A stretch of DNA of 64,000 bases from Spirodela intermedia. Its lineage: Eukaryota; Streptophyta; Magnoliopsida; Alismatales; Araceae. The notes beneath the pieces are model-generated. The model did no database searches, was not told where the DNA came from, and saw only the letters and a program-made list of their open reading frames with translations. Positions within the stretch are counted from its first letter, which is position 1, and each line of letters opens with the position of its first letter. A program made the position numbers and the translations under genes. Below are positions 38,774 through 64,000 of this stretch, one piece after another. The stretch is from the NCBI GenBank assembly GCA_902729315.2, contig LR746274.1, positions 9,177,440-9,241,439 on the forward strand, in the 5' to 3' direction.

Positions 38774-39121
38774 TAGCCAAGAGACTGTGCTAGTTCATGT
38801 ACTAGCATGATGTTACCTTGAATGTACCGTCCCTTGACAAATCTGCACTGCTCTGGAGATATAAGTCTATCATGGAAACTACTCAATCTATGTGTAATGA
38901 TCTTAGATACAACTTTATAACATAAAGTTACATAAATTGATAGGTCGAAAGTCTCTAAATGAGGTTGGGGTAGTCACCTTTGATATAAGTGCAAGAAAGG
39001 TGGCCTTCCAACTTTGTGTAAGGACTTTACGACGAAAGATTTCCTTGATAGCCTAGATGAGATCAGTGCCAACGATATCCCAATATGAAATGTAAAAATC
39101 AACTAGAAAACCATCGGGCCT
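38774..39121 (-). pseudogene. LINE ORF2 fragment (reverse transcriptase N-part), truncated at both ends
   Basis: About 345 bp nearly colinear with 59670-60003 of the large LINE at 56-64 kb. It encodes the start of the reverse transcriptase (R-P-I-S-like region) with changes. It lacks the LINE 3' end and any poly(A), so it is an internal fragment left by deletion or rearrangement. It carries the same in-frame TAG as the large copy (GCCTAGATGAGATC at about 39051-39064). At 39121 it passes within 17 bp into the poly(T) of a 5S-like element. Confidence 0.75.
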
Positions 39122-39138: not shown

Positions 39139-39380
39139 TTTTTTTGGATAATTGTCTTGGGTCGAACTTCTCGAGAGGTCACCCATCCTGATACTTCACA
39201 CGCCCAAGCACTTTGGTGCCTCTCAGGCACATTCTTTGAAGATAGATGCCACTTGTGGCTCTCATGCACACGTACTCGAGGACTTCCCAAGGAGGTCACC
39301 ATCCAAGGATTGCTCCCACCCGAGCACGCTTAACTCTAGAGTTCTTATGAGATCTGATGGCAACTCTCCCACTAATGGGG
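39139..39380 (-). mobile_element. 5S-like composite retroposon, short form without VNTR
   Basis: Sense strand is minus. It starts with 5S-rRNA-like sequence (about 39271-39362; the plus strand shows GAGGACTTCC, AAGGAGGTCACC, CCCGAGCACGCTTAACTC and GAGTTCTTATGAGATC, the complement of plant 5S nt about 25-110). A short linker follows, then a second partial 5S-like segment (39158-39214; GAGGTCACCCATCC and ACACGCCCAAGCAC), CCCAAGACAATTATCC and a short A tail (39139-39145). The VNTR present in the other copies is reduced to about one partial unit. Confidence 0.7.
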
Positions 39381-39395
39381 GTTTAAGATTTAGGG
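39377..39395 (+). repeat. Degenerate telomere-type motif between two retroelements
   Basis: GGGGGTTTAAGATTTAGGG between the 5' end of the 5S-like element and the poly(A) of LINE D; a mutated two-unit TTTAGGG stretch. Confidence 0.6.
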
Positions 39396-40112
39396 TTTTT
39401 TTTTTTTTAAGAAAGAAAATTTGATTTAGTGATAAAAGTTTGACCTCATTCAGAGGTTACATAAGTGAGATCTCATTTGCACAAGGGGCGAGGATGACAT
39501 GGAGAATTAAAGACCTCTTTTGAAGAGGGGATGTGATAATACTAGAGATAGACTCTAGTGTGCTCATCATATTTGAAGAAGGCGGTTGATTTGTATTGGG
39601 CTGAAGGAGCCTTTGAGTTCATGAAAGTTGAAAGATCTGCTCAACAATAGTAGGACGTGTAGACCTCCATGTTGTGTGCCATGAGGTGTTCCTGTAAGAC
39701 AAGAATTTGATGTAGTAAGTGGTTCTAAGAAATAAATAAAAATGATATAAAGTAGTGAGAAAAGAGTGGTTAGGGTAGTGAGGAGGATAAAACTATGCTG
39801 CAGCATGACAATAAGCTCAAATATGAACTTGCCTTCCTAGTGTTGCACGTGTCTAATCCCTCTGGCCAAGATCTTGTTAGTACCATCAGTTGCCGTACTT
39901 CCTCTAAGTAGGTAAGAGACCTTTCACCCCACAAGGAATGACTTGGTCTTTGTTTCTAACTCTTTTCTTTTCTCTTATTTTCTCTCTCTTCTTTCTCTCT
40001 CCTTGAGAGCCGCTTCTTTTACCCTCCACTAATGCCCATTATTTGGTGTACAAGGGTAATTCCTTTTGGAGTATTAGGTTAGTGATTAGGGCAAGGGAAG
40101 AAGGTTGCCCAC

Positions 40113-40143
<31 letters not shown>

Positions 40144-41238
40144 TTCCCTCACCTTCCACTAATTGTCTATGATGGGCTAGTGATTCTAGAAAAAGAAGTA
40201 GGCTGTCTCTTTTTTTTTTTTTTTCAAGAGAGAGAAAAGGAGGGAGAAAGAAATAGAGAATCGAGAGAAAGAGAGAGAGGAGAGAGGGTCAATCTTATGG
40301 ATATAGATCCTTACCTTCTCATGGGTTCAAGCTGGCTGATGGTACTAATGAGATCTTGAGAGAGGTGCTAGGTTGGCGATTCACAACTAGTTTGGCAGGT
40401 TTGATGTGCTATAGACCTATAGTTCAAAAGTGGACAAATGCCAACATGTGCTAATAGTTCTATGTCCTCACTGCTTGAGGGTGATAGATAGTAGATGTGA
40501 GGTGATTATGAGGAGAGTAATGATTGGAAGTAGTGTACCCGAGTGGATTACGATGTGCCTTGTTGTCTGTCTTGTGCTATATCTCCATTGTGGTCTTCAG
40601 CGGCCAATAGTAACCACCCCTAATCTCCTCCAAGCAATACACAACTACCGTGGAAGGGCTGGTAGTGGAGTGCGGTGTATGCGTAAAGAGGGTATGCCGA
40701 GTTGCTTAAGTCTATGAGCACCTCGGGCTTTGAGAGGCATGTCCTGCCAAAAAGAGAAGACTATCCTCCGACGCGATCTGACTCCATGCATAGCAAGGGC
40801 GTCAATTGTCTGATTCCCTTCTCAGAACTGATGCGTAATGGTTGTGATGCATCCTCGACATTGCATGATTCTGCCCACATATTCTTGAGCCTCCAATAAG
40901 GACAAGAGTCTACACGTAACATGTCTACTAACACTTTGGAATCAGATTCTAAGATAATATTAGTAATATTTTGCTCCTCACAAAGAAGCAAATCATCCCG
41001 TATTACCATAGCCTCTGCCATAGTATTAATTTGTATATTATAAAAGTTCGAAAAAGCAAAGAGAATGCATCTTGTACTATCACGTAAGATACCTCCTCCT
41101 CCAGATGGTCTTGAGTTATCTTGAGATGTTCCGTCGACGTTGAGTTTCCACTGTCCAGCCCTCGGTGGTGTCCATCTAACAGATCGAATAGTAGTCCAGG
41201 TCTATGTAAATATGATATGGAGTCCCCAAAGCCCAAAA
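39396..41238 (-). mobile_element. LINE D: 5'-truncated L1-type LINE 3' end (RNase H remnant, 3' UTR, poly(A))
   Basis: The sense strand is minus. Poly(A) at 39396-39408 is followed (sense) by CCCTAAATC. 40440-41225 is colinear with 56990-57785 of LINE C and encodes pieces of the RNase H domain (A-E-A-M-V-I-R-D and E-S-D-S-K-V-L-V-D-M-L), broken by frameshifts. The 3' UTR has internal A-tracts (poly(T) at about 40113-40134 and 40211-40224). It ends at 41238 exactly where GGGTTTAGGG begins, as expected for 5' truncation during target-primed reverse transcription into a telomere-type target. Its 3' end extends about 140 bp beyond that of LINE C. Confidence 0.78.
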
Positions 41239-41255
41239 GGGTTTAGGGTTTAGGG
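41239..41255 (+). repeat. Telomere-type motif, about 2.4 units
   Basis: GGGTTTAGGGTTTAGGG exactly between the truncated 5' end of LINE D and the poly(A) of the next 5S-like element. Confidence 0.85.
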
Positions 41256-41827
41256 TTTTTTTTTTTTTTGATAATTGTCTTGGGCCGAACTTCTCAAGAG
41301 GTCACCCATCCCGGTACTTTACACGCACAAACACTTTGGTGCCTCTCAGGCACATTCTTCGGAGATAGATGCCACTTGCACCTCTTGACATCGTGGTAGG
41401 GGTGCCTCTCGGCACGTTTCTTTGGAGCTGGGGGCATCTTGGCATGGTGAGATGGATGCCACATATATGCCTCTTGGCATGGTGGCAGGGGTGCCTCTCA
41501 GCACATTCTTCACAATTGGGGGCATCTTGGCATAGTGAGATGGATGCCACATATGCCTCTCGGCATGGTGGCAGGGGTGCCTCTCGGCACGTTCTTTAGA
41601 GAAGGGGCATCTTGGCATGGTGACATAAAGGTTTGCAACACGTGTTGGGCAGCACGATCATGCAGCGGTGCCTTTCAGCACATGCACAGCAAGCGTCTCG
41701 CAACGCATGCACACGTACTCGAGGACTTCCTAGGGAGGTCACCCATCTGGGAACTACTCCCACCCAAGCACACTTAACTCCGGAGTTCTTATGGGATCTG
41801 GTGGCAACTCTCCCACTAAGGGGGGTT
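41256..41827 (-). mobile_element. 5S-like composite retroposon with VNTR (three units)
   Basis: On the sense (minus) strand: a 5S-like head (41717-41805; the plus strand has CACCCAAGCACACTTAACTC and GGAGTTCTTATGGGATC), a linker, about three tandem units of 86-88 bp (41366-41637; each with GATGCCACATATGCCTCTCGG and GGCATCTTGGCATGGTGAGATG), a partial 5S-like tail (41281-41338), CCAAGACAATTATC and poly(A) (41256-41269). The head retains the region of the 5S internal promoter (box A, IE and box C). Several frames are open through the VNTR but only because of its periodicity. Confidence 0.75.
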
Positions 41828-41849
41828 ATTAGGGTTTAGGGTTTAGGAG
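41828..41849 (+). repeat. Telomere-type motif, about three degenerate units
   Basis: TTAGGGTTTAGGGTTTAGG plus flanking bases between two 5S-like elements. Confidence 0.8.
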
Positions 41850-41985
41850 TTTTTTTTTTTTTTGGAATATAACTCTCTTGGGCCGATGCCACATATATGC
41901 CTCTCGGCATGGTGGCAAAGGTGCCTCTCGGCACACTCCAGAGTTCTTATGAGATCCGGTGGCAACTCTCCCACTAAGGGGGGTT
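41850..41985 (-). mobile_element. 5S-like composite retroposon, internally deleted copy
   Basis: Only about 120 bp plus the A tail: a piece of the 3' segment (CTCTTGGGCCGATGCCACAT), one VNTR piece and the first 40 bp of the 5S-like head (CCAGAGTTCTTATGAGATCC). Poly(A) is at 41850-41863. The deletion removes most of both 5S-like parts. Confidence 0.65.
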
Positions 41986-41995
41986 GGGTTTAGGG
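41986..41995 (+). repeat. Single telomere-type motif
   Basis: GGGTTTAGGG between two 5S-like elements. Confidence 0.75.
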
Positions 41996-42686
41996 TTTTT
42001 TTTTTTTTGATAACTGTCTTGGGCCGAACTTCTTGGGAGGTCACCCATCCCGGTACTTCACACGCCCAAGCACTTTGGTGCCTCTCAGGCACATTCTTCG
42101 GAGATAGATGCCACTTGCGCCTCTCAACATCATGGCAGCGGTGCCTCTCGGCATGTTCTTTGGAGCTGGGGGCACCTTGGTATGGTGAGATGGATGCCAC
42201 ATATATGCCTCTCGGCACGTTCTTCGCAGCTGAAGGCGTTTTGACATGGTGAGATGGATGCCACATATATGCCTCTCGGCACGTTCTTCGCAGCTGGAGG
42301 CGTCTAGACATGGTGAGATGGATGCCACATATGCCTCTCGACGTGGTGGCAAGGGTGCCTCTCGGTACTTTCTTCAGAGCTGGGGGCATCTTGACATGGT
42401 GAGATGGATGCCACATATGCCTCTCGACGTGGTGGCAAAGGTGCCTCTTGGCACATTCTTTGATGCACAAAGCATCTTGACATGGTGACGGAGGGGTTCG
42501 TAACACGTGCTAGGCAGCACGATCATGCAGTGGTGCCTTTCAACACATGCACAACAAGTGTTTCGCAACACATGCACATGGGACTTCACAAGGAGGTCAC
42601 CCATTCAGGGACTACTCCCACCCGAGCACACTTAACTCCAGAGTTCTTATGGGATCCGGTGGCAACTCTCCCACTAAGGGGGGTTG
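41996..42686 (-). mobile_element. 5S-like composite retroposon with VNTR (about five units of 64 or 86 bp)
   Basis: Sense strand minus. The 5S-like head is at 42578-42664, the partial 5S-like tail at 42019-42078, and poly(A) at 41996-42008. The VNTR between about 42105 and 42480 has units of 86, 64, 64, 86 and about 86 bp, each starting GATGCCACATATGCCTCTCG. The two 64-bp units lack the GTGGTGGCAAGGGTGCCTCT part, so repeat number and unit structure differ from the neighbouring copy. Confidence 0.75.
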
Positions 42687-42700
42687 TTTAGGGTTTAGGG
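42687..42700 (+). repeat. Telomere-type motif, two units
   Basis: TTTAGGGTTTAGGG between the 5S-like element and the poly(A) of LINE A. Confidence 0.85.
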
Positions 42701-42949
42701 TTTTTTTTTTTAAAAAAAAATGAAGATTCGATTATATTAATGTTGAGATAATGTTTATCCCTAGGCCTCATACATGAGATCTAGGAAAGATAAGAGATAG
42801 CTCTCTTTGAAAAGTGGTAAGTCAAAGATGAAGTGGTAGATGCGACCGAGGTTGATCATCTCGGTTGAAACTTTTGCGAAATCTTCCGATCCACAATGGG
42901 AGGATAGATGTGTGGGTTGTGGTGCTGTGTACGCCAGGTCGTGTGCTGG

Positions 42950-45900
42950 CTAGGGGTTGGCCCAAGTGATCCGCCACTGTCGGGGGGCGACAGGTCTTCG
43001 TGTTTGCCGTATACGAAGTGCTGGCATACCGATCTGCTCCAAGTGATGTTGACCTCGAGCTTCAGGTGACATCTCTTGCCAAGAGGAGAATACATAGCAC
43101 AAATGAGTGCATACTGCATGTGTAATAAGCGTGTTTGCTGTTTGGTTCCCTTCTTGTAACTGGTGTGTAATGGCGGTGATCCTTGCTCTACAATGCATGA
43201 TGTCGATCCAAGTACTCTGAAGCTACCAATGTGAACAAGAACCTGCACGTAGCATCTGAACAAGCACTCGTGAGTCAGATTCTATGACGATATCATGGAG
43301 ATTGCGTTCCTCACAGAGGAGCAAACCATCACGTATCGCCATAGCCTCTGCTGCAGTGTTAGTTTGAATGTTATAAAAATAAGAAAAGGCAAAGATAATA
43401 CTCCCCGTAGGATCCCGTAAGATGCCTCTTCCTCCTACAGGTTCAGGGTTCCCTCGGGCTGCTCCATCGACGTTCAACTTTAGGTGTCCAACTGGTGGCA
43501 GTCTCTATCGGATGACTCGAGTGGAGATTTCTATATGCGTAGGCGTGGCTTGGACTCCCCAGGTCCTAAGGGCCTCACAGATTGAGGCCGAACATGTCGC
43601 TGAAGGCGACACCAAAGGATGGGTACTTCTCAGCCATTGTGTGACGTGTCTCATGATCTTTGGTGCGCGCATCTATTGACCTGCAAAATAAGAGAGATTT
43701 TGCCCTTTCTATATCTCCCATAACATATATGCTATGGAAATACGTAGGTAGGGGCTGCCCCTAGAGCTTTGCGGCGAATCAAAGACTCTCCTGAAAATCT
43801 CTAGTGGTGTAAGAAGGAGAAATATGAAATGCTAGGGACCAATTCAATAAGAGTTGGTTCCAACATTTCGTAGCAATAACACTATGAAAAAATAATTGGC
43901 CCATAGTTTCATTTCTCGGAGTGATGGGACAATAATGACACTTAGAGCAGATGTTATGTCCTGTGATGGATATACGATCATTTGTAGAAAGTCCACAGTG
44001 TGTCAATTTCCACATAAAAAAAGAGACTCGAGGTACGATAGTAGGGTGCCAAATGAGATCTCCCCAAAACTATTTTGTAGAGTGATTTCTAAAGTAATTT
44101 TAAGAAGAACTATAAGAAAAACGTCCATCTAAGGTAAGAGTCCAGATCGAATAATCATCACTAGGGCCCAACTCTATTAACGAGATCTCTGGTAGTAAAT
44201 CTAATGAGAGTCCGTGCCTCTCGAGGAATACATTAGTATCTCCATCAAGAAGTTGAGCCACCGTAAGATGAGGCCAGGATGGCATAAAAGAGGTAGAGGA
44301 GGCCAAGGGAGTATCTGCATGCCAAGTGTCATACCAAGCACTGATAGTGCCTCGTCCCACTCGCCATCGGATTAAAGGCCTCATCTGCAACCAATGTCTT
44401 TGCCAATCTACCCATCGTTTTCCTCCTTTTATGTCGGTAAGTTGGCTAGCCCAATTCTCGTATTTGGCCAGTACAAAGGTCCCTAAGGGTGATCTCGTCG
44501 TCCTCATCCGCCGTACGAGTTTCTTTTGAAGCATATCAAGGATATCCTTAGGGCGTCTAATCCCTAGGCCACCCTCATCCATCGGTCAACATGCTTTTTC
44601 TCAGGAAACTAGACATTGACAATGAGGCCCGTCGAGTTGACCATCCCATAAGAAGGAGGTATAAATCCGCCTCACAGATCGTCCGAGGAAGATGGGGCAT
44701 CCAAGGTAATCAAAGGGTAGATGACCACGCGAGAACCCTATTAGGTTTTGTATGCGTCGTATGGTGCTAATGGTGGCAGAAGATGTAACCATAAAGCTAC
44801 TCTTCGAGGCATTGACGAGTTGACCTACGGCCCGCTCGTAGCTCGAGATGATAGTCACGAGTCCCTTGATAGATGCTTCACACCCATTAAGGAAAAGTAT
44901 CGCATCATCAACAAACAAAGAATGCGATATCATTGGGCAACCCCTCTTCGAATGATATGGTTGGATAAGCCCACGTGTCACCACTCGGGAGAGGGTTCGA
45001 CTAAGGACTTCTTCAACCAATATAAAGAGAGTGGGTGATAGGGGATCACCATGCTGTAACCCTCTCGTGGCTGTGAAGAAAGGTGTGGAAGTGTTGTTCA
45101 CCAATAGGGAGAAATAGTTCTCCCTAATGCATGCATCGATCAGGTCAATGAATTCGTCAGTGAATCCGAAGCGTCAAAGCACTTTGGTAAGAAAATTCCA
45201 CTCGATCTTATCAAAAGCCTTTTTCATGTCTAATTTGATGATGACATTAGAACCACGGATGTCCTGGTCAAGGGATTGTGCTAATTCATGAACTAACATG
45301 ATGTTATCATGAATGTGCTGTCCCTTAACAAATTTGTACTGCTCTGGAGATATGAGACTATCAAGAAAAATACTTAGTCGTGCTGTAATGATCTTGGATA
45401 CAACTTTATAACACACATTACAAAGATTGATGGGCCGAAAATCTCTAAAAGAAGTTGGGTTGACTACCTTTGATATGAGTGCAATAAAGGTGGCTTTCCA
45501 ACTTCGTGGGAAGATTTTGCGGCGGAAGAATTCTTTGATGGCATGAACTAAATCGGTTCCGACGATGTCCCAACATGTTGAATAGAAATCTGCTGGAAAA
45601 CCATCAGGCCCAAGTGCTCAGTTTCTACTCATTGAGAAGATCACATCTTTGATCTCCTCCCTAATAGGTATGGTCATAATGGATGAGATCTCCTGGTGGG
45701 TAATTAAGAATGGAATCGATGAGAGTATATCCTCCGAGATCTCAATCGGCTGGGAAGAAAGAAGGGTACAAAGGTATGCAATTCCTACCTCTTGCATACG
45801 AGATGTGTCCTGATCATACATCTCTAGAAGAGATATATAATCAGAGTGAGATCGGTGTGCGATCGAGGCATGAAAGAAACGTGTGTTCCTATCACCCTCG

Positions 45901-46930
45901 CGTAGCCACTAGATGTGCGATTTTTGGAGATAATATATCTCCTGTCGTCGTGCAGCCTCTTCTAATTGCTCACTCACTCGAACTCGTCTGGCCCAAGTGT
46001 CGTTAGTCCATCGAGCCTGCAGTTGTCTCTCGACCCCAGTTAGCTCTTTCTTCAACTCTTCTACCTGGGTGTGGATATTCTCGTATACATGCCAGTTCCA
46101 CCATTTAAGGTGAAGTTTGAGATTCCTTAATTTGTAACTGAGGTTCTCTATAGGAAAGTTTGAGATATCTCCATGCCAATGACTCCGCACGAAGCTTTGG
46201 AAGCCTTCGTGTCGAGTCCACATATTCTGAAACCTAAAAAGAGGTCTAGGGGTACTAGCTCTCGAGTCAGGGAGAATAAGAATCGGCGTGTGATCTGACC
46301 TATAGTGAGGTAGGAGTGTGACTAATATGAGACATTGCACTATTGCAATGTTATTAGTGAAGCAACGATTAATGCGCTCATATATCCTTGCACCTCCTTG
46401 TCTCTCATTGCACTACGTCCAAACCTCGCCAAAAGTAGGAGGTTCAATGAGGGCCGCGCGAAAAATAAAATCATTGAACGTCTCCATGTGACGAGCTTGA
46501 GGAACTCGTTCCCCTTGACGTTCAGCGATTCTATGTACACTGTTGAAATCTTCGACTACGAACCAAGGAGAATCAACTAGTATAGGATAATCCTGCATAT
46601 ATCGTACTAGGTCTTCCCAAAGAGTCTCACGATCTTGGTGTCTATGTGAAGCATAAATGATTGAGAATATAAGCTCTTGGCCAGAGCCTAATACCCTCAT
46701 CGTAACATGTTGTGGCCCCTCAACTAATAGTTGTAGAGAATATGATCTCTTCCAGAACAACCAGATGTGGTTCGTAGGGTTAGAATGAAAGTGATCCATA
46801 CTTATGCGTCTAAGTAATGGGTGAATGTGATCTGATGGTATCATAGGTTCAATAAGCCCGACGAGGCCTAGTTGGTGCTTATTGATGAGTTCAATAGTGT
46901 GAGACAGTTCCAAATAAGATTAGGTATCAT
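42950..46930 (-). pseudogene. LINE A ORF2 remnant (AP endonuclease, reverse transcriptase, RNase H)
   Basis: In sense order: ORF2 ATG at 46930, with a 28-bp deletion after W-N-C compared with copy B, which shifts the frame. Endonuclease pieces follow at 46413-46913 and 45909-46340 (S-D-H-T-P-I-L-I-L-P). Reverse transcriptase pieces are at 45174-45600 and 44601-45104 (F-V-D-D-A-I-L-F, where the family has F-A-D-D), then a connection region at 44100-44582. The RNase H part is at 43223-43477 (N-V-D-G-A, A-E-A-M-A and E-S-D-S, the first three catalytic acidic residues). It is inactive. Confidence 0.8.
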
Positions 46931-46932
46931 GA

Positions 46933-49337
46933 GTATAAGTCACATTTGCTCAACTTTTTTCTCTCTCCTCGCGGGAGCTTCTCTCTCATCAACGTCACAT
47001 TCAAACGGCGAGATCTCTCCCATCTGACCTCAGATCCTGCTGAAACTTGTTTCATTCGATTCGCAAGGTCAGAAACCATCATCATCGAGTCGTCACACGT
47101 GGAAAATGGTTGATTGGTGCTCTCGGTCTCGCAATTTCTCCCTCGAGAGGTATTTTTCAAAATGTTATATTCTCGGGGTAATATCTACTGATTTACTTGG
47201 CTGAAATATTATATCCTTATATCAGTAGAATCGTATTTTCTTGATTTACAGCTTTTCCTTCTTGATCATTTTATTTTGATGCTTCGTTGATGAGTAAATC
47301 ATCGTTTTCATTGGTGGACCAGTGTCCGGCCGATGAGAAATTGAGGGAAGAAGCATGCTTTGGGCCTGGCAACGGTCCGAAAATCGGAACCGTCGATCGC
47401 CTGAATGGTCGAATGACGGACGGTCAGGATTTTCTGTCGGCTGGAGATCCCCCGGTCCCAGATATCGCGTCGATGCCAGCCGGCCCTGCTATTTCAACTA
47501 TTGATTTACAGATCACCGGACTAGATTTACTAGAGGAAAAGGTGCCGCAAGCGGCTGACGCCGTTTCCTCGGTTACGGTGTCCGTGCTTGCGTCAGCGAG
47601 AGCTGACACGGAGGGCACCAACGGGAGCTTAAATCCATCCGTTGAAATTGAAATCAACAGAATGGATTCAGTGCCGCAACTTTTTGCGGGCGCCGTTCTC
47701 TCGTGTGCGACGCCCATGACGTCATCTACGTAAGAAAGGGCGGGCGCAGCAACCTAGACAACCGGAGGCCAGACCGCGCCGGCTCACGGCGTCCTGGCCC
47801 AGATCAGGGCTGAGCCGGAGCAGGCCCCAGTAGCCGAAGCCACGCTGGCCGTGGCGGCTCAGTCTCAGGCCCAGCCGGCCGAGGTTGTGCGGAGCACGGT
47901 CGTGCCGGACAAGACCGCATAGCCCAAGGGTCTGAAGGCCAAAGCTTCTAGGATCCAGCCACCGGCCCAGACTAAACCGGCCCAGGCCCCACCGACCCAG
48001 GACCCAACGGCCCAGGCTGCTCAGGCCCGGACCGCTCAGGTCCAGGCCGCTTAGGCCCAGACCGAGCTGGCCCAGCACACCCAAGCACAGCCCACCCAGG
48101 CCCCAGACCTACTGGCCCAAACCGCTGAAACCAGAGCTGCTCAAGCCCACGCCAAGCTAACCCAGCCCACCTAGGCCCAAGCCAAGTCTTGGGCCCAACG
48201 ACTAGTAGGACAACAGCCCACTCCTACAGTGGAAAATACACCGAGACGCGAGTTACACCCCACTTATGTTGATGGAATACCGTCACAGGGTTACACTGAT
48301 GAAGGGGGAATGAGAATAGTCTCATTTTCTTCGAAGTAGGTCTCCCAACTGGCGGAGGCCTTCCAATTTTCATTGATAGGGCGCTTCTCTACGAAATGTC
48401 CCCACCTAGATGATATTTATAGGATCTATTTGGCCCTAGGACATTTTCAAGGTAAGGTAGTCATCGGTGCCCATGATTATTAGAACGTCTTTATCCATTT
48501 TGAGCTCGAGGCTGACTATCAGAAAGCTTAGAGTAGGACCACATGAGAGATTCAAGATACCATTATGCATACATATAGATGGACCCCATTGACAGACAGT
48601 CTTTCTCGAGGAAAACAACCGCACTCCATCCCAATTTGGATAGGTTTTCCTAGTCTACTAGCACATTTATTCACGCCTAAGGCACTTGAGTCTTTGGTGA
48701 ATGCCGTCGATACATTTATACGCCTAGATCCAGACGTTAAAATGTTTAACCGCCCAGGTTATGCACGAGTATGTGTAGAGATAGACCTCTTGGCCCCACT
48801 TCAACGCATGATCATTGTGCAGAATGGGGATGAGAAGATCTATTAAACAGTTATATATGAGAGACTACCTCATTTTTGTATCCATTGCATAGTGTTTGGA
48901 CACACTATCCACACTTGTCGACATAAGACCACCTCGTCATCTTTAGAGTCTACTGTGATTTATTTATCACCTATGTCATATGATGATTATATCACTGAGG
49001 CAGGAAAGACTATACCTAGCCGCCCTCCCATACAGAGCTCGCGTGCTCCCTCTCGACCACTACCGGTCCAGATTAGTGTCCCTCTAGCTGGTCTTGGGAG
49101 AACAACCCCACTTACATCGGTATCACATCTTATCTCCTGAGCATCCACATCCACCCGAAAGAGAAGGAAGATGGTAGTAGGCCAAACTCCCCCCATACCA
49201 ACAGGTAAGGGAAAGACAATCAAGACATCGAATGTTTTTGAGGCTTTAGGTACCTTGATTGAGGAGGCGGACAATGTTCCCATCACAGGGAACAATATCA
49301 GCCCACGAGTTCGACGACACTCCCCCAAGCACTGATA
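46933..49337 (+). pseudogene. LINE A 5' UTR and ORF1 remnant, inverted relative to its ORF2
   Basis: ORF1 starts at ATG 47290 and is open to a TAA at 47731-47733, where LINE C has TCA. The downstream Ala/Gln/Pro-rich linker (47740-48200, many GCCCAGGCC words) contains further stops. The conserved DUF4283-like region is at about 48320-48850 (F-T-P-K-A-L-E-S-L and M-F-N-R-P-G-Y-A-R-V) and the zinc knuckle (C-x2-C-x4-H-x4-C) at about 48878-48925. It ends within the low-complexity C-terminal part. Confidence 0.78.
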
Positions 49338-49414
49338 CTAATGAGATACTAATGTAGATACATTAGTATCTCGAGGAATACATTAGTATCTATTAATGTG
49401 ATCTGATGGTATCT
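49338..49414. other. Patchwork junction between LINE A and LINE B
   Basis: About 77 bp made of short pieces found elsewhere in the LINEs: TCGAGGAATACATTAGTATC (also at 44221-44240), AATGTGATCTGATGGTATC (also at about 46823-46842) and a 13-bp inverted repeat (49344-49356 and 49359-49371, spacer 2 bp) built from the complement of the first piece. This is typical of templated insertion during end joining or microhomology-mediated template switching. Confidence 0.75.
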
Positions 49415-52299
49415 CCATCAAGAAGTTGAGCCACCATAAGATGAGGCCAGGATGGCATAAAAGAGGTAGAGGAGGCCAAGGGAGTATCTGCATGCCAAGT
49501 GTCATACCAAGCACTGATAGTGTCTCGTTCCACTCACTATCGGATTAAAGGCCTCATCTGCAACCAATGTCTTTGCCAATCTGCTCATCGCTTTCCTCCT
49601 TTTATGTCGGTAAGTTGGCTAGCCCAATTCCCGTATTTGACTAGTACAAAGGTCCTTAAGGGTGATCTTGTCATCCTCATCCACCATACGAGTTTCTTTT
49701 GAAGCATATCAAGGATATCTTCAGGGTGTCTAATCCCTAGGCCACCCTCGTCCATCGGTCGACATGCTTTTTTCCAATAAACTCGGCGTTGACGATGAGG
49801 CCCGTCGAGTTGTCCATCCCATAAGGAGGTACAAATCTACCTCACAGTTCGTAAGACAGTGTCTAGTACCCCATGTACAGCAAGTAGGTGCAAGGGCATA
49901 CTCATGAGGACATAGCATATCAATTGGATGCGTCCGCTTGAAGATAGAAGCTGAAGCTTCCACCCGTCAAGTTTCTTCCTCAACTTGCACAAAAGGGAAT
50001 CAAAGTAATGAACCCTAGTGCATCTGAGGAAGATGGGGCATCCAAGGTAGTCAAAGGGTAGATGACCACGCGAGAACCCTGTTAGGTTTTGTATGTGTCG
50101 TATGGTGCTAATGGTGGCAGAAGATGTAACCATAAAGCTACTCTTTGAGGCATTGACGAGTTTACCTACAGCCCGCTCGTAGCTCGAGATGATAGTCATG
50201 AGTCCCTTGATGAATGTTTCACACCTATTAAGAAAAAGTATCGCATCATCAGCAAACAAAGAATGCAATATGATTGGGCAACCCCTCTTCGAGTGATATG
50301 GTTGGATAAGCCCACATGTCACCACTCGGGAAGGGGTTCGACTAAGGACTTCTTCAACCAATATGAAGAGAGTGAGTGATAGGAGATCACCTTGTCGTAA
50401 CCCTCTCGTGACTGTGAAGAAAGGTGTGGAAGTGTTGTTCACCAATAGAGAGAAATGGTTCTCCCTAATGCATGCATCAACCAGGTCAATGAACTCATCG
50501 GTGAATCCGAAGCGTCGAAGCACTTCGGTAAGAAAATTCCACTCGATCTTATCAAAAGCCTTTTCCATGTCTAATTTGATGATGACATTAGAACCACAGA
50601 TGTCCTGGTCAAGGGATTGTGCTAATTCATGAACTAACATGATGTTATTATGAATGTGCCATCCCTTAACAAATTTGTACTGCTCTGGAGATATGAGCCT
50701 ATCAAGAAAAATACTCAGTCGTGCTATAATGATCTTAGATACAACTTTATAGCACACATTACAAAGATTGATGGGCTTAAAATTTCTAAAAGAAGTTGGG
50801 TTGACCACCTTTGGTATGAGTGCAATAAAGGTGGCTTTCCAACTTCATGAGAAGACTTTGTGGTGGAAGAATTCTTTGATGGCATGAACTAAATCGGTTC
50901 CGACGATGTCCCAACATGTTGAATAGAAATCCGCTGGAAAACCATCAGGCCTAGGTGCTCGGTTTCTACTCATTGAGAAGATCACATCTTTGATCTCCTC
51001 CCTAGTAGGTATGGTCATAATGGATGAGATCTCCTGGTGGGTAATTAAGAATGGAATCGATGAGAGTATATCCTCCGAGATCTCAATCGGCTGGGAAGAA
51101 AGAAGGGTACAAAGGTATGCAATTCCTACCTCTTGCATACGAGATGTGTCCTGATCATACATCTCTAGAAGAGATATATAATCAGAGTGAGATCGGTGTG
51201 CGATCGAGGCATGAAAGAAACGTGTGTTCCTATCACCCTCGCGTAGCCACTAGATGTGCGATTTTTGGAGATAATATATCTCCTGTCGTCGTGCAGCCTC
51301 TTCTAATTGCTCACTCACTCGAACTCGTCTGGCCCAAGTGTCGTTAGTCCATCGAGCCTGCAGTTGTCTCTCGACCCCAGCTAGCTCTTTCTTCAACTCT
51401 TTTACCTGGGTGTGGATATTCTCGTATACATGCCAGTTCCACCATTTAAGGTGAAGTTTGAGATTCCTTAATTTGTAACTGAGGTTCTCTATAGGAAAGT
51501 TTGAGATATCTCCATGCCAATGACTCCGCACGAAGCTTTGGAAGCCTTCGTGTCGAGTCCACATATTCTGAAACCTAAAAAGAGGTCTAGGGGTACTAGC
51601 TCTCGAGTCAGGGAGAATAAGAATCGGCGTGTGATCTGACCTATAGTGAGGTAGGAGTGTGACTAATATGAGACATTGCACTATTGCAATGTTATTAGTG
51701 AAGCAACGATCAATGCGCTCATATATCCTTGCGCCTCCTTGTCTCTCGTTGCACCACGTCCAGACCTCACCAAAAGTAAGAGGTTCAATAAGGGCCGCGC
51801 GAAAAATAAAATCATTGAACATTTCCATGTGATGGGCTCGAGGGACCTGTCTCCCTTGACGTTCAGTGATTCTACATACACAGTTGAAATCTTCGACTAC
51901 GAACCAAGGAGAATCAACTAGTATAGGATAATCCTGCATATATCGTACTAGGTCTTCCCAAAGAGTCTCACAATCTTGGTGTCTATGTGAAACATAAACG
52001 ATTGAGAATATAAGCTCTTGGCGAAAGCCTAATACCCTCATCGTAACATGTTGTGGTCCCTCAACTAATAGTTGTATAGAATATGATCTCTTCCAGAACA
52101 ACCAAATGTGGTTCATAGGGTTATAATAAAAGTGATCCATGCTTATGCGTCTAAGTAATGGGTGAATGTGATCTGATGATATCATAGGTTCAATAAGCCC
52201 GATGAGGCCTAGTCAGTGCTTATTGATGAGTTCAATAATGTGGGACTGTGTTTCGAGGTTGCCCAATCTTTGACAGTTCCAAATAAGGCTAGGTATCAT
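49415..52299 (-). pseudogene. LINE B ORF2 remnant (endonuclease and reverse transcriptase, RNase H missing)
   Basis: ORF2 ATG is at 52299. The endonuclease is largely open over 51250-52185 (V-E-D-F-N-C-V and S-D-H-T-P-I-L). The reverse transcriptase is open over 49837-50808 (D-M-E-K-A-F-D-K-I-E-W, L-R-Q-G-D and H-S-L-F-A-D-D-A-I-L-F). A stop at about 51250 and frameshifts elsewhere interrupt it. In the position of the amber codon of LINE C this copy reads a His codon. Confidence 0.8.
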
Positions 52300-54932
52300 A
52301 AGTAGTGGTGGCTATTGCCACGAGCCCTAGATTTTGTGACATATGGAGAGCATCGTCGTGAAGTCCTATCTACCATCTTTTTCTAGTATCCTCTTTGAAG
52401 GTCAATGCCCTCAATGGGAAGATCTAATGAGGACTCAGATCTAGAGTCCTCAGCACTTGATGTAGAGCGCCTGCTAGTGTCTTCCACTAAAGAGGAAAGA
52501 GAGATTACTCGACGATTTGTCAAGCATTCTCTCCCGCTAGGGCTCTCACGCTCCCTTGAGCTCTCTAAGGGTGTGCTCAATGGTGGATCCGAAGGTTGAG
52601 GTAGTAGGGAGGAAGAAAGAGAAAGAGAAGGAGGATCGAATAGGGATGTACCTAGTGGGCTCCTATTGGAGACCCTATTGGGTGATAGAGGGGGGTGGGA
52701 GGGTGGGTGAGGTGTGGTGTGGGAGGGGGAAGACCTAGGTGATGGGGAGCTAATAGGTAATGGAAGATGTGTGAGTGTAGAGGGTCTAACGGATGAAGGG
52801 GAGCTAGTTGGTGATAGAGAGGTAGTAAGAGCTAAAGGCCTGACAAGTGGAGAGGAACAGATTAAAGGTGAAGTAGTAGTAGGCCCCCCATGTTTGGGGG
52901 AGTGTCGTCGAACTCGTGGGCTGATACTGTTCCCTATGATGGGAACATTGTCCGCCTCCTCAATCAAGGTACTTAGAGCCTCAAAAACATTCGATGTCTC
53001 GACTGTCTTCCCCTTACCTATTGGTATGGGGGGAGTTGGGCCTACTACCATCTTCCTTCCCTTTTGGGTGGATGTGGATGCTTGGGAGATAAGATGTGAT
53101 ACCGATGTAGGTGGGGTTATTCTCCTAGGACCGGCTGGAGGGACACTAATCTAGACCGGTAGTGGTCGAGAGGGAGCACACGAGCTCTATATGGGAGGGT
53201 GGCTAGGTGTAGTCTTCCCTGCCTTAGTGATATAATCATCATATGACATAGGTGATAAATAAATCGCAGTAGACTCTAAAGATGACAAGGTGGTCTTATG
53301 TCGACAAGTGTGGATAGTGTGTCCAAACACTATGCAATGGATACAAAAATGAGGTAGTCTCTCATATATAACTGTTTAATAGATCTTCTCATCCCCATTC
53401 TGCACAATGATCATGCGTTGAAGTGGGGCCAAGAGGTCTATCTCTACACATACTCGTGCATAACTTGGGCGGTTAAACATTTTAACGTGTGGATCTAGGC
53501 CTATAAATGTACCGACGACATTCACCAAAGACTCAAGTGCCTTAGGCGTGAATAAATGTGCTGGTAGACTAGGAAAACTTATCCAAATTGGGATGGAGTG
53601 CGGTTGTTTTCCTCAAGAAAGACCGTCTGTTTATGGGGTCCATCTATATGTATGCATAATGGTATCTTGAATCTCCCATGTGGTCCTACTCTAAGCTTTC
53701 TGATAGTCAGCCTCGAGCTCAAAATGGATAAAGACGCTCCGATAATCACGGGCACCGATGACTACCTTACCTTGATAATGTCCTAGGGCCAAATAGATCC
53801 TATAAATATCATCTAGGTGGGGACGTTTCATAGAGAAGTGCCCTATCAATGAAAATTGGAAGGCCTCTGCCAGTTGGGAGACCTACTTCGAAGAAAATGA
53901 GATTGTTCTCATTCCCCCTTCATCAGTGTAACCCCGTGACGGTATTCCATCAGCATAAGTGGGGTGTAACTCGCGTCTCGGTGTATTTTCCATTGTAGGA
54001 GTGGGCTGTTGTCCTACTAGTCGTTGGGCCCAAGACTTGGCTTGGGCCTAGGTGGGCTGGGTTAGCTTGGCGTGGGCTTGAGCAGCTCTGGTTTCAGCGG
54101 TTTGGGCCAGTAGGTCTGGGGCCTGAGTGGGCTGTGCTTGGGTGTGCTGGGCCAGCTCGGTCTGGGCCTAAGAGGCCTGGACCTGAGCGGTCCGGGCCTG
54201 AGCAGCCTGGGCCGTTGGGTCCTGGGTCGGTGGGGCCTGGGCCGGTTTAGTCTGGGCCGGTGGCTGGATCCTAGAAGCTTTGGCCTTCAGACCCTTGGGC
54301 TGTGCGGTCTTGTCCGGCACGACCGTGCTCTGCGCAACCTCGGCCGGCTGGGCCTGAGACTGAGCCGCCACGGCCAGCGTGGCTTCGGCTACTGGGGCCT
54401 GCTCCGGCTCAGCCCTGATCTGGGCCAGGACGCCGTGAGCCGGCGCGGTCTGGCCTCCGGTTGTCTAGGTTGCTGCGCCCGCCCTTTCTTACGTAGATGA
54501 CGTCATGGGCGTCGCACACGAGAGAACGACGCCCGCAAAAAGTTGCGGCATCGAATCCGTTCCGTTGATTTCAATTTCAACGGACGGATTTAAGCTCCCG
54601 TTGGTGCCCTCCGTGTCAGCTCTCGCTGACGCAAGCACGGACACCGTAACCGAGGAAACGGCGTCAGCCGCTTGCGGCACCTTTTCCTCTAGTGAATCTA
54701 GTCCGGTGATCTGTAGATCAACAGTTGAAATAGCAGCGCCGGCTGGCATCGACGCGATCTCTGGGACCGGGGGATCTCCAGCCGACGGAAAATCCTGACT
54801 GTCCGTCATTCGACCGTTCAGGCGATCGACGGTTCTGATTTTCGGACCATTGCCAGGCCCAAAGCATGCTTCTTCCCTCAGTTTCTCATCGGCCGAACAT
54901 TGGTCCGCCGATGAAAACGATGATTTACTCAT
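52300..54932 (-). pseudogene. LINE B ORF1 remnant (zinc-knuckle nucleic-acid-binding protein)
   Basis: Starts at ATG 54932; the N-terminal frame (to 54489) ends in the same TAA as LINE A. The Ala/Gln/Pro linker is at 54000-54480, the DUF4283-like region at about 53390-53910, the zinc knuckle near 53315-53360, and a Ser/Pro-rich C-terminal frame runs over 52383-53051, ending about 85 bp before the ORF2 ATG. ORF1p of L1-type LINEs binds the element RNA. Confidence 0.78.
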
Positions 54933-55284
54933 CAACGAAGCATCAAAATAAAATGATCAAGAAGGAAAAGCTGTAAATCAAGAAAATACGATTCTACTGA
55001 TATAAGGATATAATATTTCAGCCAAGTAAATCAGTAGATATTACCCCGAGAATATAACGTTCTGAAAAATACCTCTCGAGGGAGAAATCGCGAGACCGAG
55101 AGCATCAGTCAACCATTTTCCACGTGTGACGGCTCGACGATGATGCTTTCCGACCTTGCGAATCGAATGAAACAAGTTTCAGCGGGATCTGAGGTCAGAT
55201 GGGAGAGATCTCGCTGTTTGAATGTGACGTTGATGAGAGAGAAGCTCTCGCGAGGAGAGAGAAAAAAGTTGAGCAAATGTGACT

Positions 55285-55293
55285 GGTTTAGGG
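55285..55293 (+). repeat. Single telomere-type motif at the LINE B 5' end
   Basis: GGTTTAGGG between LINE B and the poly(A) of the next 5S-like element. Confidence 0.7.
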
Positions 55294-55888
55294 TTTTTTT
55301 TTTTTTTTTCGATAATTGTCTTGGGCTGAACTTCTCAAGAGGTCACCCATCCTGATACTTCACACGCCTAATCACTTTGGTGCCTCTCAGGCACATTCTT
55401 TGGAGATAGATGCCACTTGTGCCTCTCGACATCGTGGCAGGGGTGACTCTCAGCACGTTCTTTGGAGCTAGGGGCATCTTGGCATGGTGAGATGAATGCC
55501 ATATATATGCCTCTCGGCATAGTAAGATGAATACTACATATGACTCTCGGCATAGTGAGATGAATACCACATATGCCTCTCGGCATGGTTGCAAGATGGC
55601 CTCTCAGCACATTCTTCAAAGCTGGAAGCATTTTGGCATGGTGAGATAGATGCCACATATACCTTTTGGCATAATGGCAAGGGTGCCTCTCGGCACATGC
55701 TTCGATGCTCAAGACATCTTGACATGGTGACAGAGGGGTTCATAACACGTGCTGGGCAGCACAATCATACATCAGTGCCTTTCAGCACATGCAAAGCAAG
55801 CGCCTCACAACGCATGCACACATAATCGGGGACTTCCTAGAGAGGTCACCAATCTAGAGACTGCTCCCACCCGAGCACGCTCAACTTC
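55294..55888 (-). mobile_element. 5S-like composite retroposon with VNTR, 5'-truncated
   Basis: Poly(A) at 55294-55308, partial 5S-like tail at 55320-55376, VNTR at 55400-55740 with diverged and shortened units (ATGCCATATATGCCTCTCGG and CATAGTGAGATGAAT), then a 5S-like head cut off at 55888 after CCGAGCACGCTCAACTTC. The missing head end is replaced directly by the TTTAGGG array, consistent with 5' truncation at insertion. Confidence 0.72.
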
Positions 55889-55890
55889 AG

Positions 55891-56086
55891 GTTTAGGGTT
55901 TAGGGTTTAGGGTTTAGGGTTTAGGGTTTAGGGTTTAGGGTTTAGGGGTTTAGGGTTTAGGGTTTAGGGTTTAGGGTTTAGGGTTTAGGGTTTAGGGTTT
56001 AGGGTTTAGGGTTTAGGGTTTAGGGTTTAGGGTTTAGGGTTTAGGGTTTAGGGTTTAGGGTTTAGGGTTTAGGGTTTAGGGTTTAG

Positions 56087-56088
<2 letters not shown>
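55891..56088 (+). repeat. (TTTAGGG)n array, about 28 units
   Basis: 198 bp of almost perfect Arabidopsis-type telomere repeat with one GGGG variant at about 55942. The G-rich strand reads 5'->3' to the right. It abuts the poly(A) tail of LINE C on its right and the truncated 5S-like head on its left. Confidence 0.97.
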
Positions 56089-56122
<34 letters not shown>

Positions 56123-56123
<1 letters not shown>

Positions 56124-57152
56124 ACTCCATGACGTTCATCATATTTGAGGAAGGTGATTGATTTGCAGTGGGTTGAAAAAGCCTTTGAGTTTATGAAAGT
56201 TGGAAGATCTGCTCAACAGGAGTAGGACGAGAGCTCCATGTTGTGCGCCATGCAATGTTCCTGCAAGACAAGAGTTTGCTGCAGTAAGTGGTTCTAAGAG
56301 ATAAATACATTGATATAAAGTGGTGAGAAAAGAGTGATTAGGGCAGTGAGGAGGATAGAACTATGCTGAAGCATGACAATAAGCCCAAATATGAACTTGC
56401 CTTGCTAGTGTTGCACGCGCCTAATCCCTCTGGCCAAGATCTTGTTAGTATCATCAGTTGCCGTACTTCCTCTAAGTAGGTAAAGGACCTTTCACCCCAC
56501 GAGGAATGACTTGGTCTCTGGTTCTAACTCTTTTCTTTTCTCTTATTCTCTCTCTCTTCTTTCTCTCTCCTTGAGGGCCTCTTCTTTTACCCTCCACTAA
56601 TGCCCATTATTTGGTGTACATTAGGCTAGTGATTAAGGGAAGGGAAAAAGGTTGCCCTTTTTTTTTTTTTTTTTTTTTTGGTTTTAGGGCCCTTTCCCTC
56701 ACCCTCCACTAATTGTCTATGATGGGCTAGTGATTCCGGGAAAAGAAGTAGGCTGTCTTTTTTTTTTTTTTTTTTTTTTTTTCCTAGAGAGAGAAAGGGA
56801 GGGAGAAAGAAATAGAGAATCGAGAGAGAGAGAGAGGAGAGAGGGTCAATCCTATGGATATAGATCTTTACCTTCTCATGGGTTCAAGCTGGCTGATGAT
56901 ACTAATAAGATCTTGAGAGAGGTGCTAGGTTGCCGATTCACAACTAGTTAGCAGGTCTGATGTGCTATAGACCTATAGTTCAAAAGTGGGCCGATGCCAA
57001 CATATGCTGATAGTTCTATGTCCTCACTACTTGAGCATGATAGATAGTAGATGTGATGTGATTATGAGGAGAGTAATGATTGGAAGTAATGTACCCGAGT
57101 GGATTACGATGTGCCTTGTTGTCCGTGTTGTGCTGTATCTCCATTGTGGTCT
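56123..57152 (-). other. LINE C 3' UTR with internal A-tracts and GA-rich segment
   Basis: Colinear with the 3' part of LINE D (39540-40720). On the sense strand it contains a CT-rich stretch immediately followed by an A-tract (56758-56830), a second A-tract at 56658-56680, and then unique sequence to the terminal A tail. Relative to LINE D the LINE C end is about 140 bp shorter, so the two used different polyadenylation points. Confidence 0.7.
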
Positions 57153-61349: not shown

Positions 61350-61352
61350 GAT

Positions 61353-63971: not shown

Positions 63972-64000
63972 GTGTCGGCCTCCTGTTCGCTCGCATTCGT

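What the first reader, a model, noticed from the sequence alone, without database searches (positions are those of the whole stretch)
39139..56122. Chain of same-orientation non-LTR elements separated by telomere-type CCCTAAA motifs
Seen: six successive junctions (39.39, 41.25, 41.85, 42.00, 42.70 and 55.29 kb) plus the 198-bp array at 55.89-56.09 kb. Except for a degenerate case at 39.39 kb and a TTTAGGAG variant at 41.85 kb, all show sense-strand poly(A) directly followed by CCCTAAA repeats and then the 5' end of the next element. LINEs and 5S-like elements do this alike. Known: Bombyx TRAS and SART LINEs insert into telomeric repeats and Drosophila HeT-A/TART attach to ends; I do not recall this being established for plant L1-type LINEs. 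Inference: the endonuclease of this LINE family prefers (TTTAGGG)n, or the elements are added to telomere ends.
Basis: partly seen in the sequence, partly recalled or inferred. Interest (0 to 1): 0.92.

Follow-up and report, generated by a model that had tools for sequence, protein, structure and literature searches.

The report
Plant chromosome ends built from RNAs
At most chromosome ends of a small plant (probably the duckweed Spirodela intermedia), copies of mobile elements and even of ordinary cell RNAs such as tubulin mRNA and U6 RNA are joined one after another onto telomere repeats, which suggests that the ends are partly extended by copying whatever RNA is at hand.

Summary
The window is the last 64 kb of contig C11 in a plant assembly with 18 large contigs, probably Spirodela intermedia clone 8410. 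Poly(A)|CCCTAAA occurs 92 times genome-wide; of 89 on the large contigs, 77 lie within 60 kb of an end, 75 with one polarity (3' end inward), at 29 of 36 ends. Opposite-strand forms: 2 and 0.

Farther in, the same families mostly insert ordinarily: 0 of 12 interior LINE copies read have CCCTAAA; 5 of 6 interior SINE places lack it, four with target-site duplications (the sixth is an inner chain on C1). So "the endonuclease prefers TTTAGGG" is not needed.

The chains also hold processed cell RNAs between telomeric repeats: full-length alpha-tubulin mRNA (99-100% identical to its four-exon parent), U2B'' and RRM-protein mRNAs, an eL34 mRNA end, U6 snRNA, and U3 snoRNA beside a LINE. Arrays between elements are short (median 20 bp); inner SINEs are more often older (58 versus 25 pairs, p=0.002), though not in this window.

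Best reading: a chromosome end's GGGTTT-3' primes LINE-enzyme copying of RNAs offering AAA, and telomerase recaps. Nicking within telomeric arrays is not excluded.

The parts
38776..39120 (-). fragment of the LINE C family at the inner base of the chain
   Evidence: 92% identical to the LINE at 56.1-64 kb, same orientation
39148..39383 (-). 5S-derived SINE, internally deleted; its own 3' flank is not telomeric
   Evidence: blastn pieces at 39148-39264 and 39280-39383; flank read
39380..39399 (.). degenerate telomeric junction (TTTAAGATTTAGGG)
39409..41239 (-). 5'-truncated LINE C copy, poly(A) next to the 39.39 kb junction
   Evidence: blastn 90% to the LINE at 56.1 kb over 39564-41239; 3' end read
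41240..41256 (.). telomeric junction, two TTTAGGG units
41271..41827 (-). 5S-derived SINE
   Evidence: blastn; Rfam 5S_rRNA at 41718-41821, 32.9 bits, E=0.0004, below the gathering score of 38
41828..41850 (.). telomeric junction with the TTTAGGAG variant
41865..41986 (-). short 5S-derived SINE copy
   Evidence: blastn pieces
41987..42000 (.). telomeric junction, about one and a half units
42010..42686 (-). 5S-derived SINE, used as genome query
   Evidence: Rfam 5S_rRNA at 42577-42679, 38.9 bits over the gathering score of 38; 130 genome match pieces
42687..42702 (.). telomeric junction, two units
42711..46908 (-). 3' part of a LINE about 70-75% related to LINE C
46938..49331 (+). inverted LINE 5' segment, like a twin-priming inversion
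   Evidence: reverse complement of 52891-55284 at 96%
49409..55284 (-). second LINE copy, reaching the 55.29 kb junction with its 5' side, 3' truncated
   Evidence: RVT_1 in 49837-50844; no Pfam hit in 51250-52212 and 52383-53150
55285..55299 (.). telomeric junction, one unit, between a SINE 3' end and a LINE 5' side
55312..55890 (-). 5S-derived SINE, divergent
   Evidence: blastn 76%
55891..56089 (.). telomeric array, about 28 TTTAGGG units
56123..64000 (-). LINE C copy, 3'-shortened, reaching the contig end
   Evidence: RVT_1, zf-RVT and RNase H (RVT_3) in 57153-59936 and Exo_endo_phos in 59937-61352

Best explanation
These are terminal chains made by serial reverse transcription onto chromosome ends. 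A telomere terminating in ...GGGTTT-3' anneals to an RNA's poly(A), or to an AAA near the end of an RNA that has none. The reverse transcriptase of the resident plant L1-type LINE copies that RNA (LINE, 5S-SINE, host mRNA, U6) onto the end. The new end, which is the RNA's 5' side, is recapped with TTTAGGG repeats by telomerase, and later another RNA is added. Steps shown: polarity, junction form, end location, processed RNA copies, short arrays, partial age order, a telomerase RNA-binding domain encoded in the genome. Steps inferred: priming by the terminus rather than by a nick, the LINE enzyme as the copier, recapping by telomerase.
For: Poly(A)|CCCTAAA: 77 of 89 matches on C1-C18 within 60 kb of an end (1.6% of the sequence), 75 of 77 with one polarity, 29 of 36 ends. 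Reversed control pattern: 4 matches. Opposite-strand forms: 2 and 0. Interior LINE copies read: 0 of 12 with CCCTAAA; LINE copies at ends with normal polarity: 14 of 16 joined to telomeric sequence, 13 with CCCTAAA and one (L089) with AAACCCTAA. Host RNAs in the chains: tubulin mRNA, U2B'' (28, 71), RRM-protein mRNA (29, 70), eL34 (30, 72), U6 and U3 (27). U6 joins AAACCC without poly(A). Arrays: 64 of 80 are 35 bp or shorter, 8 are 70 bp or longer, while the C1 right telomere is about 8 kb. Inner SINE more diverged in 58 pairs, less in 25, p=0.0024. No target-site duplication signal at the ends. Telomerase RNA-binding domain encoded.
Against: The same polarity and the same GGGTTT junction would result if the LINE endonuclease, whose L1-type target is T-rich before A (recalled), nicked the G strand at TTT/AGGG inside arrays. 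The window's own chain breaks the age order: its outermost SINE is the most diverged of four (0.135, then 0.082, 0.079, 0.095 inward). Two end LINEs with normal polarity lack CCCTAAA (L088 has only AAACCC, L090 none). Two of 77 junctions near ends have the wrong polarity. Element junctions with CCCTAAA also occur 360-380 kb from the C1 end, where the U2B'' copy lies, and at C11:8.29 Mb and C6:5.65 Mb. The age, phase and array counts come from stretches chosen because they held SINE or junction hits, and some chains share segments by exchange. The ten-A junction matches near ends were not all read.
Confidence: 0.72

Rival explanations
1. Ordinary target-primed insertion into telomeric or short interstitial telomeric arrays: the L1-type endonuclease nicks the G strand at GGGTTT/AGGG, and repeated nested insertions into the same arrays build the chains, the short arrays being in part target-site duplications.
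For: 76 of 83 poly(A)-telomere junctions begin CCCTAAA, the phase such a nick would give. TTT/A resembles an L1 target (recalled). Many arrays (10-35 bp) are not far in length from the 9-18 bp duplications of interior SINEs. The free shuffle of flanks gave a weak excess of matching for true pairs (20 of 500 shuffles reached the mean).
Against: Compared only within chains and without self-comparison, an element's own flanks match no better than other flanks (26 against 26, p=0.58, n=59; low power because arrays are repeats). Nested insertion predicts no age order, but 58 against 25 pairs are ordered. Only 4 of 12 interior poly(A)|CCCTAAA matches are element junctions. Random insertion into kb-long arrays would not leave 64 of 80 arrays at 35 bp or less, unless arrays shrink later.
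Confidence: 0.2
2. Assembly artefact or spreading by exchange among subtelomeres: a few chains formed once and were copied between ends.
For: The C1 and C6 right ends share matches at one constant offset. The U2B'' copies on C1 and C18 share their outer junction. LINE 3' regions at C18, C4 and C11 are 100% identical over the 437-base query. If this is S. intermedia 8410 the assembly is a nanopore/Illumina hybrid (passages of PMC7645714).
Against: The chains differ in content and array length from end to end. The tubulin, RRM-protein and eL34 copies each gave one contiguous chain match in the genome besides the parent and weaker relatives. Exchange cannot create the junction form itself.
Confidence: 0.06
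3. The CCCTAAA is part of the transcript (a conserved 5' or 3' tail) and not target sequence.
For: It recurs at most end junctions in the fetched stretches.
Against: The 12 interior LINE 3' flanks and the five interior SINE copies read lack it, and tubulin mRNA and U6 RNA, which are not of these families, are flanked by it.
Confidence: 0.01

Closest known systems
Drosophila HeT-A/TART/TAHRE (details recalled; named in abstract starts seen in listings: PMC10088271, and PMC5537684)
   Same: Head-to-tail chains at chromosome ends, 3' oligo(A) inward, 5' end outward; serial terminal addition
   Different: Here telomerase-type repeats separate the copies, a telomerase domain is encoded, and the LINE is an endonuclease-bearing plant L1 with interior copies; unrelated RNAs are present too
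Bombyx SART/TRAS and Chlorella Zepp LINEs (listed in PMC10088271 passages; details recalled)
   Same: LINEs associated with telomerase repeats; Zepp is in the green lineage
   Different: SART/TRAS cut telomeric repeats by a sequence-specific endonuclease (recalled); here interior copies read show no such specificity, and host mRNAs and small RNAs are included
Endonuclease-independent human L1 insertion at dysfunctional telomeres (Morrish et al. 2007; seen only as a reference in PMC4700185; content recalled)
   Same: L1-type enzyme using a telomere end as primer; the closest mechanistic match
   Different: That was seen in mutant cultured cells; here the pattern is in an assembled plant genome, at 29 of 36 ends
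Athena and other endonuclease-deficient Penelope-like elements at telomeres (PMC10088271 passages; also in Selaginella, recalled)
   Same: Attachment to telomere repeats without an element endonuclease
   Different: A different element class; here L1-type with an EN domain, and other RNAs captured
Fungal MoTeR and FoTeR telomeric retrotransposons (passages of PMC12857005)
   Same: 3' ends joined to a few telomeric repeats
   Different: Restriction-like endonuclease; here an APE-type endonuclease and many interior copies
SINE3, 5S-rRNA-derived SINEs (passages of PMC10886601)
   Same: 5S-like head, poly(A) tail; target-site duplications at interior sites
   Different: In a plant, with a second 5S-like segment near the 3' end (by eye) and concentrated at chromosome ends

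Membership tests
Plant L1-type LINE | APE-type endonuclease and RT, plant-type RNase H | tested here: met
   PF03372, PF00078, PF13966, PF13456 in the 56.1-64 kb copy
Plant L1-type LINE | Poly(A) tail and no fixed target sequence at interior sites | tested here: met
   12 interior copies read of 15 interior listed: A-rich tails and varied flanks; target-site duplications of interior LINEs not tested
Telomere-sequence-specific LINE (SART/TRAS type) | Copies confined to telomeric repeats by endonuclease specificity | tested here: not met
   0 of 12 interior LINE copies read lie next to CCCTAAA
Drosophila-type telomeric element (HeT-A/TART) | Uniform polarity, 3' end inward, at chromosome ends | tested here: met
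   75 of 77 junctions near ends
Drosophila-type telomeric element (HeT-A/TART) | Element restricted to chromosome ends, telomerase absent | tested here: not met
   Interior copies; telomerase RNA-binding domain at C1:8638861
Endonuclease-independent L1 insertion at telomeres | Poly(A) joined directly to telomeric repeat, no target-site duplication | tested here: inconclusive
   Junction form met; no duplication signal but low power
Endonuclease-independent L1 insertion at telomeres | Independence of the endonuclease | not testable with these tools
   Needs a retrotransposition assay
SINE3 (5S-derived SINE) | 5S rRNA-like head | tested here: met
   RF00001 at 38.9 bits (gathering 38) for one window copy and 38 for one in L057; the other listed copies 32.9-37.7
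SINE3 (5S-derived SINE) | Poly(A) tail and target-site duplications of non-LTR type | tested here: met
   Duplications read by eye in L024-L027, about 9-18 bp; unclear in L029. L024 has no clear A tail
Cassandra-type TRIM | Two LTRs with short fixed duplications, no poly(A) | tested here: not met
   Poly(A) tails in most copies and longer, variable duplications; 5 bp is recalled for Cassandra and seen for other TRIMs

The most novel reading that the evidence does not exclude
In a flowering plant that also encodes telomerase, chromosome ends grow by indiscriminate RNA capture: the telomere 3' end acts as a standing primer at which an ordinary L1-type enzyme copies any RNA offering AAA, so that LINEs, SINEs, spliced mRNAs and snRNAs are laid down in order as a dated record, and intronless genes (an intact tubulin copy) arise at chromosome ends.
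Probability: 0.6. Interest if true: 0.93.

Novelty: new variant of a known kind. Interest (0 to 1): 0.86.

Why it matters
Telomere-associated LINEs are listed for insects, fungi, an anole and one green alga, and L1 at mammalian telomeres is known from mutant cells (recalled). A land plant with telomerase whose ends carry serial retro-additions of a non-specialised L1, its SINE and host RNAs would be a natural case of the proposed link between retrotransposition and telomerase. It makes several questions testable: whether telomere ends prime LINE reverse transcription in normal plants, whether this rescues short telomeres, and how intronless genes arise at chromosome ends. My ten searches of an open-access library listed no report of it in a land plant; I judged by titles and abstract starts, several lists were cut (for example 20 of 84, 12 of 59, 12 of 3,095), and subscription papers are mostly not held.

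Tried and rejected
Tried and rejected: (a) endonuclease specificity for TTTAGGG as a general rule, rejected by interior copies. (b) CCCTAAA as part of the transcript, rejected likewise. (c) A target-site duplication test within telomeric arrays (69 element pairs): the free shuffle gave a weak excess (of 500 shuffles 130, 41 and 20 reached the observed three measures); the within-chain shuffle the reverse (845, 971 and 992 of 1000), but it compared some arrays with themselves; the corrected comparison (59 pairs) gave no signal. (d) A BTB/POZ-like segment at C18:13109-13450 (name by my reading) looked like another mRNA copy, but its genome matches are rearranged pieces of a C11 cluster, so it is not counted. 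(e) Relatives in other genomes could not be searched: the tool holds none for this genome. (f) The Zepp and Penelope papers are not held. (g) Interior poly(A)|CCCTAAA matches: by eye, 8 of 12 (L065-L069, L071-L073) are not element junctions; L064, L070, L074 and the one in L030 are.
Full report
WHERE THE WINDOW LIES. The window is G000:C11:9177440-9241439 and the contig has 9,241,439 bases, so it is the terminal 64 kb of the contig. The genome has 136,496,439 bases in 32 contigs; C1-C18 sum to 135.7 Mb and the largest, C9, has 13,401,826 bases. Passages of PMC7645714 give for Spirodela intermedia clone 8410 an assembly of 136.6 Mb, 18 pseudomolecules of about 134 Mb and a largest scaffold of 13.4 Mb. 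The identification is my inference; no tool names the organism. In that paper's main text the words subtelomer, SINE and chromosome ends are counted 0 times.

OBSERVATION. The elements are an L1-type LINE (EN, RT, zf-RVT, RNase H) and a SINE with a 5S rRNA-like head (Rfam RF00001).

GENOME-WIDE PATTERN. AAAAAAAAAACCCTAAA occurs 92 times; the same letters read backwards occur 4 times. On C1-C18, 77 of 89 matches lie within 60 kb of a contig end (1.6% of the sequence): 38 plus at left ends, 37 minus at right ends and 2 of the wrong polarity, at 29 of 36 ends. The other 3 of 92 are on the small contig C30. The opposite-strand forms AAAAAAAAAAGGGTTTA and AAAAAAAAAATTTAGGG occur 2 and 0 times. The SINE search lists 130 pieces (39 of 110 candidates scored). 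Of the 62 best pieces, which I tallied, 46 are within 60 kb of an end with normal polarity, 6 with the other polarity and 10 farther in. The LINE 3' region search lists 40 copies (40 of 101 candidates scored), so both families are undercounted.

FLANKS AT ENDS AND INSIDE. Of the 40 LINE copies I read the 3' flank of 29. Interior: 0 of 12 with CCCTAAA (L031-L041, L092). Near ends or on C30 with normal polarity: 14 of 16 joined to telomeric sequence, 13 with CCCTAAA and L089 with AAACCCTAA; L088 has AAACCC only and L090 none. One wrong-polarity copy about 50 kb from an end (L091) has none. Eleven were not read, three of them interior. Among the 62 SINE pieces six places lie more than 100 kb from an end. 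Five of them (L024-L027, L029) have no CCCTAAA; four show target-site duplications of about 9-18 bp, read by eye, and in L029 it is unclear. The sixth, C1:11.106 Mb, is an inner chain with CCCTAAA (L030). Interior element junctions found through the junction pattern itself are L064, L070 and L074. At C8, a LINE with a five-A tail is joined to about seven and a half repeats that border DNA matching neither element (L042).

HOST RNAS IN THE CHAINS. (1) Tubulin mRNA: C4:20166-21879 is contiguous from the 5' UTR through a 450-codon open frame and 3' UTR to poly(A), with CCCTAAA repeats on both sides. The parent at C3:5384955-5387760 is split into four pieces, 99-100% identical (Pfam Tubulin; "alpha" is my reading). 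(2) U2B''-like mRNA, 5'-truncated: contiguous at C1:11105360-11106124, some 360 kb from the end, with another copy at C1:11382071; the parent at C1:8544038-8546659 is in four pieces at 93-96% (name by PDB sequence match). A part at C18:4491738 shares the outer junction with the C1 copy and looks like one event spread by exchange. (3) An RRM-protein mRNA (glycine-rich, by eye): C2:23720-24351; parent at C3:5282205-5283014 in two pieces at 94-97%. (4) eL34 mRNA 3' end: C12:4189854-4190184, with about 17 repeats; parent at C8:5891452 in one piece at 97%, so without intron evidence. (5) U6 snRNA, model positions 1-105 of 105, E=3e-23, joined to AAACCC through its own AAA without poly(A); the last eight or so matched bases overlap the telomeric tract. 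(6) Plant U3 snoRNA, positions 1-221 of 221, E=7e-51, beginning at a telomeric array and followed some 30 bp later by a LINE 5' region, which looks like a template switch.

MECHANISM TESTS. Junction phase: in the fetched stretches 83 of 120 telomeric tracts have an A run of five or more directly before them; of these 83, 76 begin CCCTAAA, as expected if ...GGGTTT-3' pairs with poly(A), four begin CCTAAAC and three are other variants. Array length: 80 closed arrays, median 20 bp, 64 at 35 bp or less, 8 at 70 bp or more, whereas the C1 right telomere is about 8 kb of mostly TTTAGGG. Age: 71 SINE copies, 62 of them in 19 chains; the inner copy is more diverged in 58 pairs and less in 25, permutation p=0.0024. 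On C4 the order from outside in is tubulin (99-100% to its parent), then SINEs at 0.063, 0.106, 0.091, 0.137, 0.203 and 0.186. The window's own chain does not follow the order (0.135, 0.082, 0.079, 0.095), nor do several others (L045, L049, L050, L053). Duplication test: no signal in the corrected form, low power (searches pointed in opposite directions). These stretches were chosen for SINE or junction hits, so the counts describe chains and not a random sample. A telomerase RNA-binding domain is encoded at C1:8638861 in an open frame of 474 codons.

READING. Terminal priming explains polarity, strand, short arrays, age order, lack of duplications, and the indifference to RNA type. A nick at GGGTTT/AGGG by the LINE endonuclease explains polarity and phase but not age order or array length without added assumptions such as array shrinkage. 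A mixture is possible: a nick near the base of a telomere followed by loss of the outer part and recapping.

NOVELTY. Telomere-associated retroelements are listed for insects, Chlorella, fungi, an anole, rotifers and Giardia (passages of PMC10088271; PMC12857005). The review PMC4700185 counts the word plant 0 times in its main text. None of the listings of my ten searches showed a land-plant LINE case (titles and abstract starts only, several lists cut). I therefore call it a new variant of a known kind, with host-RNA capture at the telomeres of a plant as the new part.

Noticed in passing
window 42711-55284: A LINE 3' part (minus) abuts an inverted LINE 5' segment (46938-49331, plus) and then a second LINE missing its 3' end; the first two look like a twin-priming inversion, joined to another LINE without telomeric repeats.
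   Followed up: partly
C1 right end and C6 right end: SINE and LINE matches recur at one constant offset equal to the difference in contig length, so the last 80 kb or so of C1 and C6 look alike: recent terminal exchange or an assembly duplicate.
   Followed up: no
C4:20166-21879 (L094): An intact, intronless tubulin copy, nearly identical to its parent, sits between telomeric repeats: a possible newborn retrogene.
   Followed up: partly
C1:11.086 and 11.105 Mb, C11:8.289 Mb, C6:5.654 Mb: Element|CCCTAAA junctions far from contig ends; the C1 ones keep the polarity of the right end, as if an old terminus had been covered.
   Followed up: partly
C9:29 kb (L075), C17:7.6 kb (L076), C1:12.1 kb (L013): Chain pieces of opposite orientation near left ends, perhaps local inversions or end-to-end joins.
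   Followed up: no
window 56123 and C18:12985 (L086): LINE copies ending at the same shortened 3' site (GGAGTC) before poly(A) and telomeric repeats: a shared event spread between ends or an early polyadenylation site.
   Followed up: no
C18:13109-14472: A BTB/POZ-like segment (by eye) follows a long telomeric array; its genome matches are rearranged pieces of a C11 cluster.
   Followed up: partly
L080 reverse strand, 409-664: U3 snoRNA next to a LINE 5' region, like the U6-L1 chimeras of mammals (recalled).
   Followed up: partly
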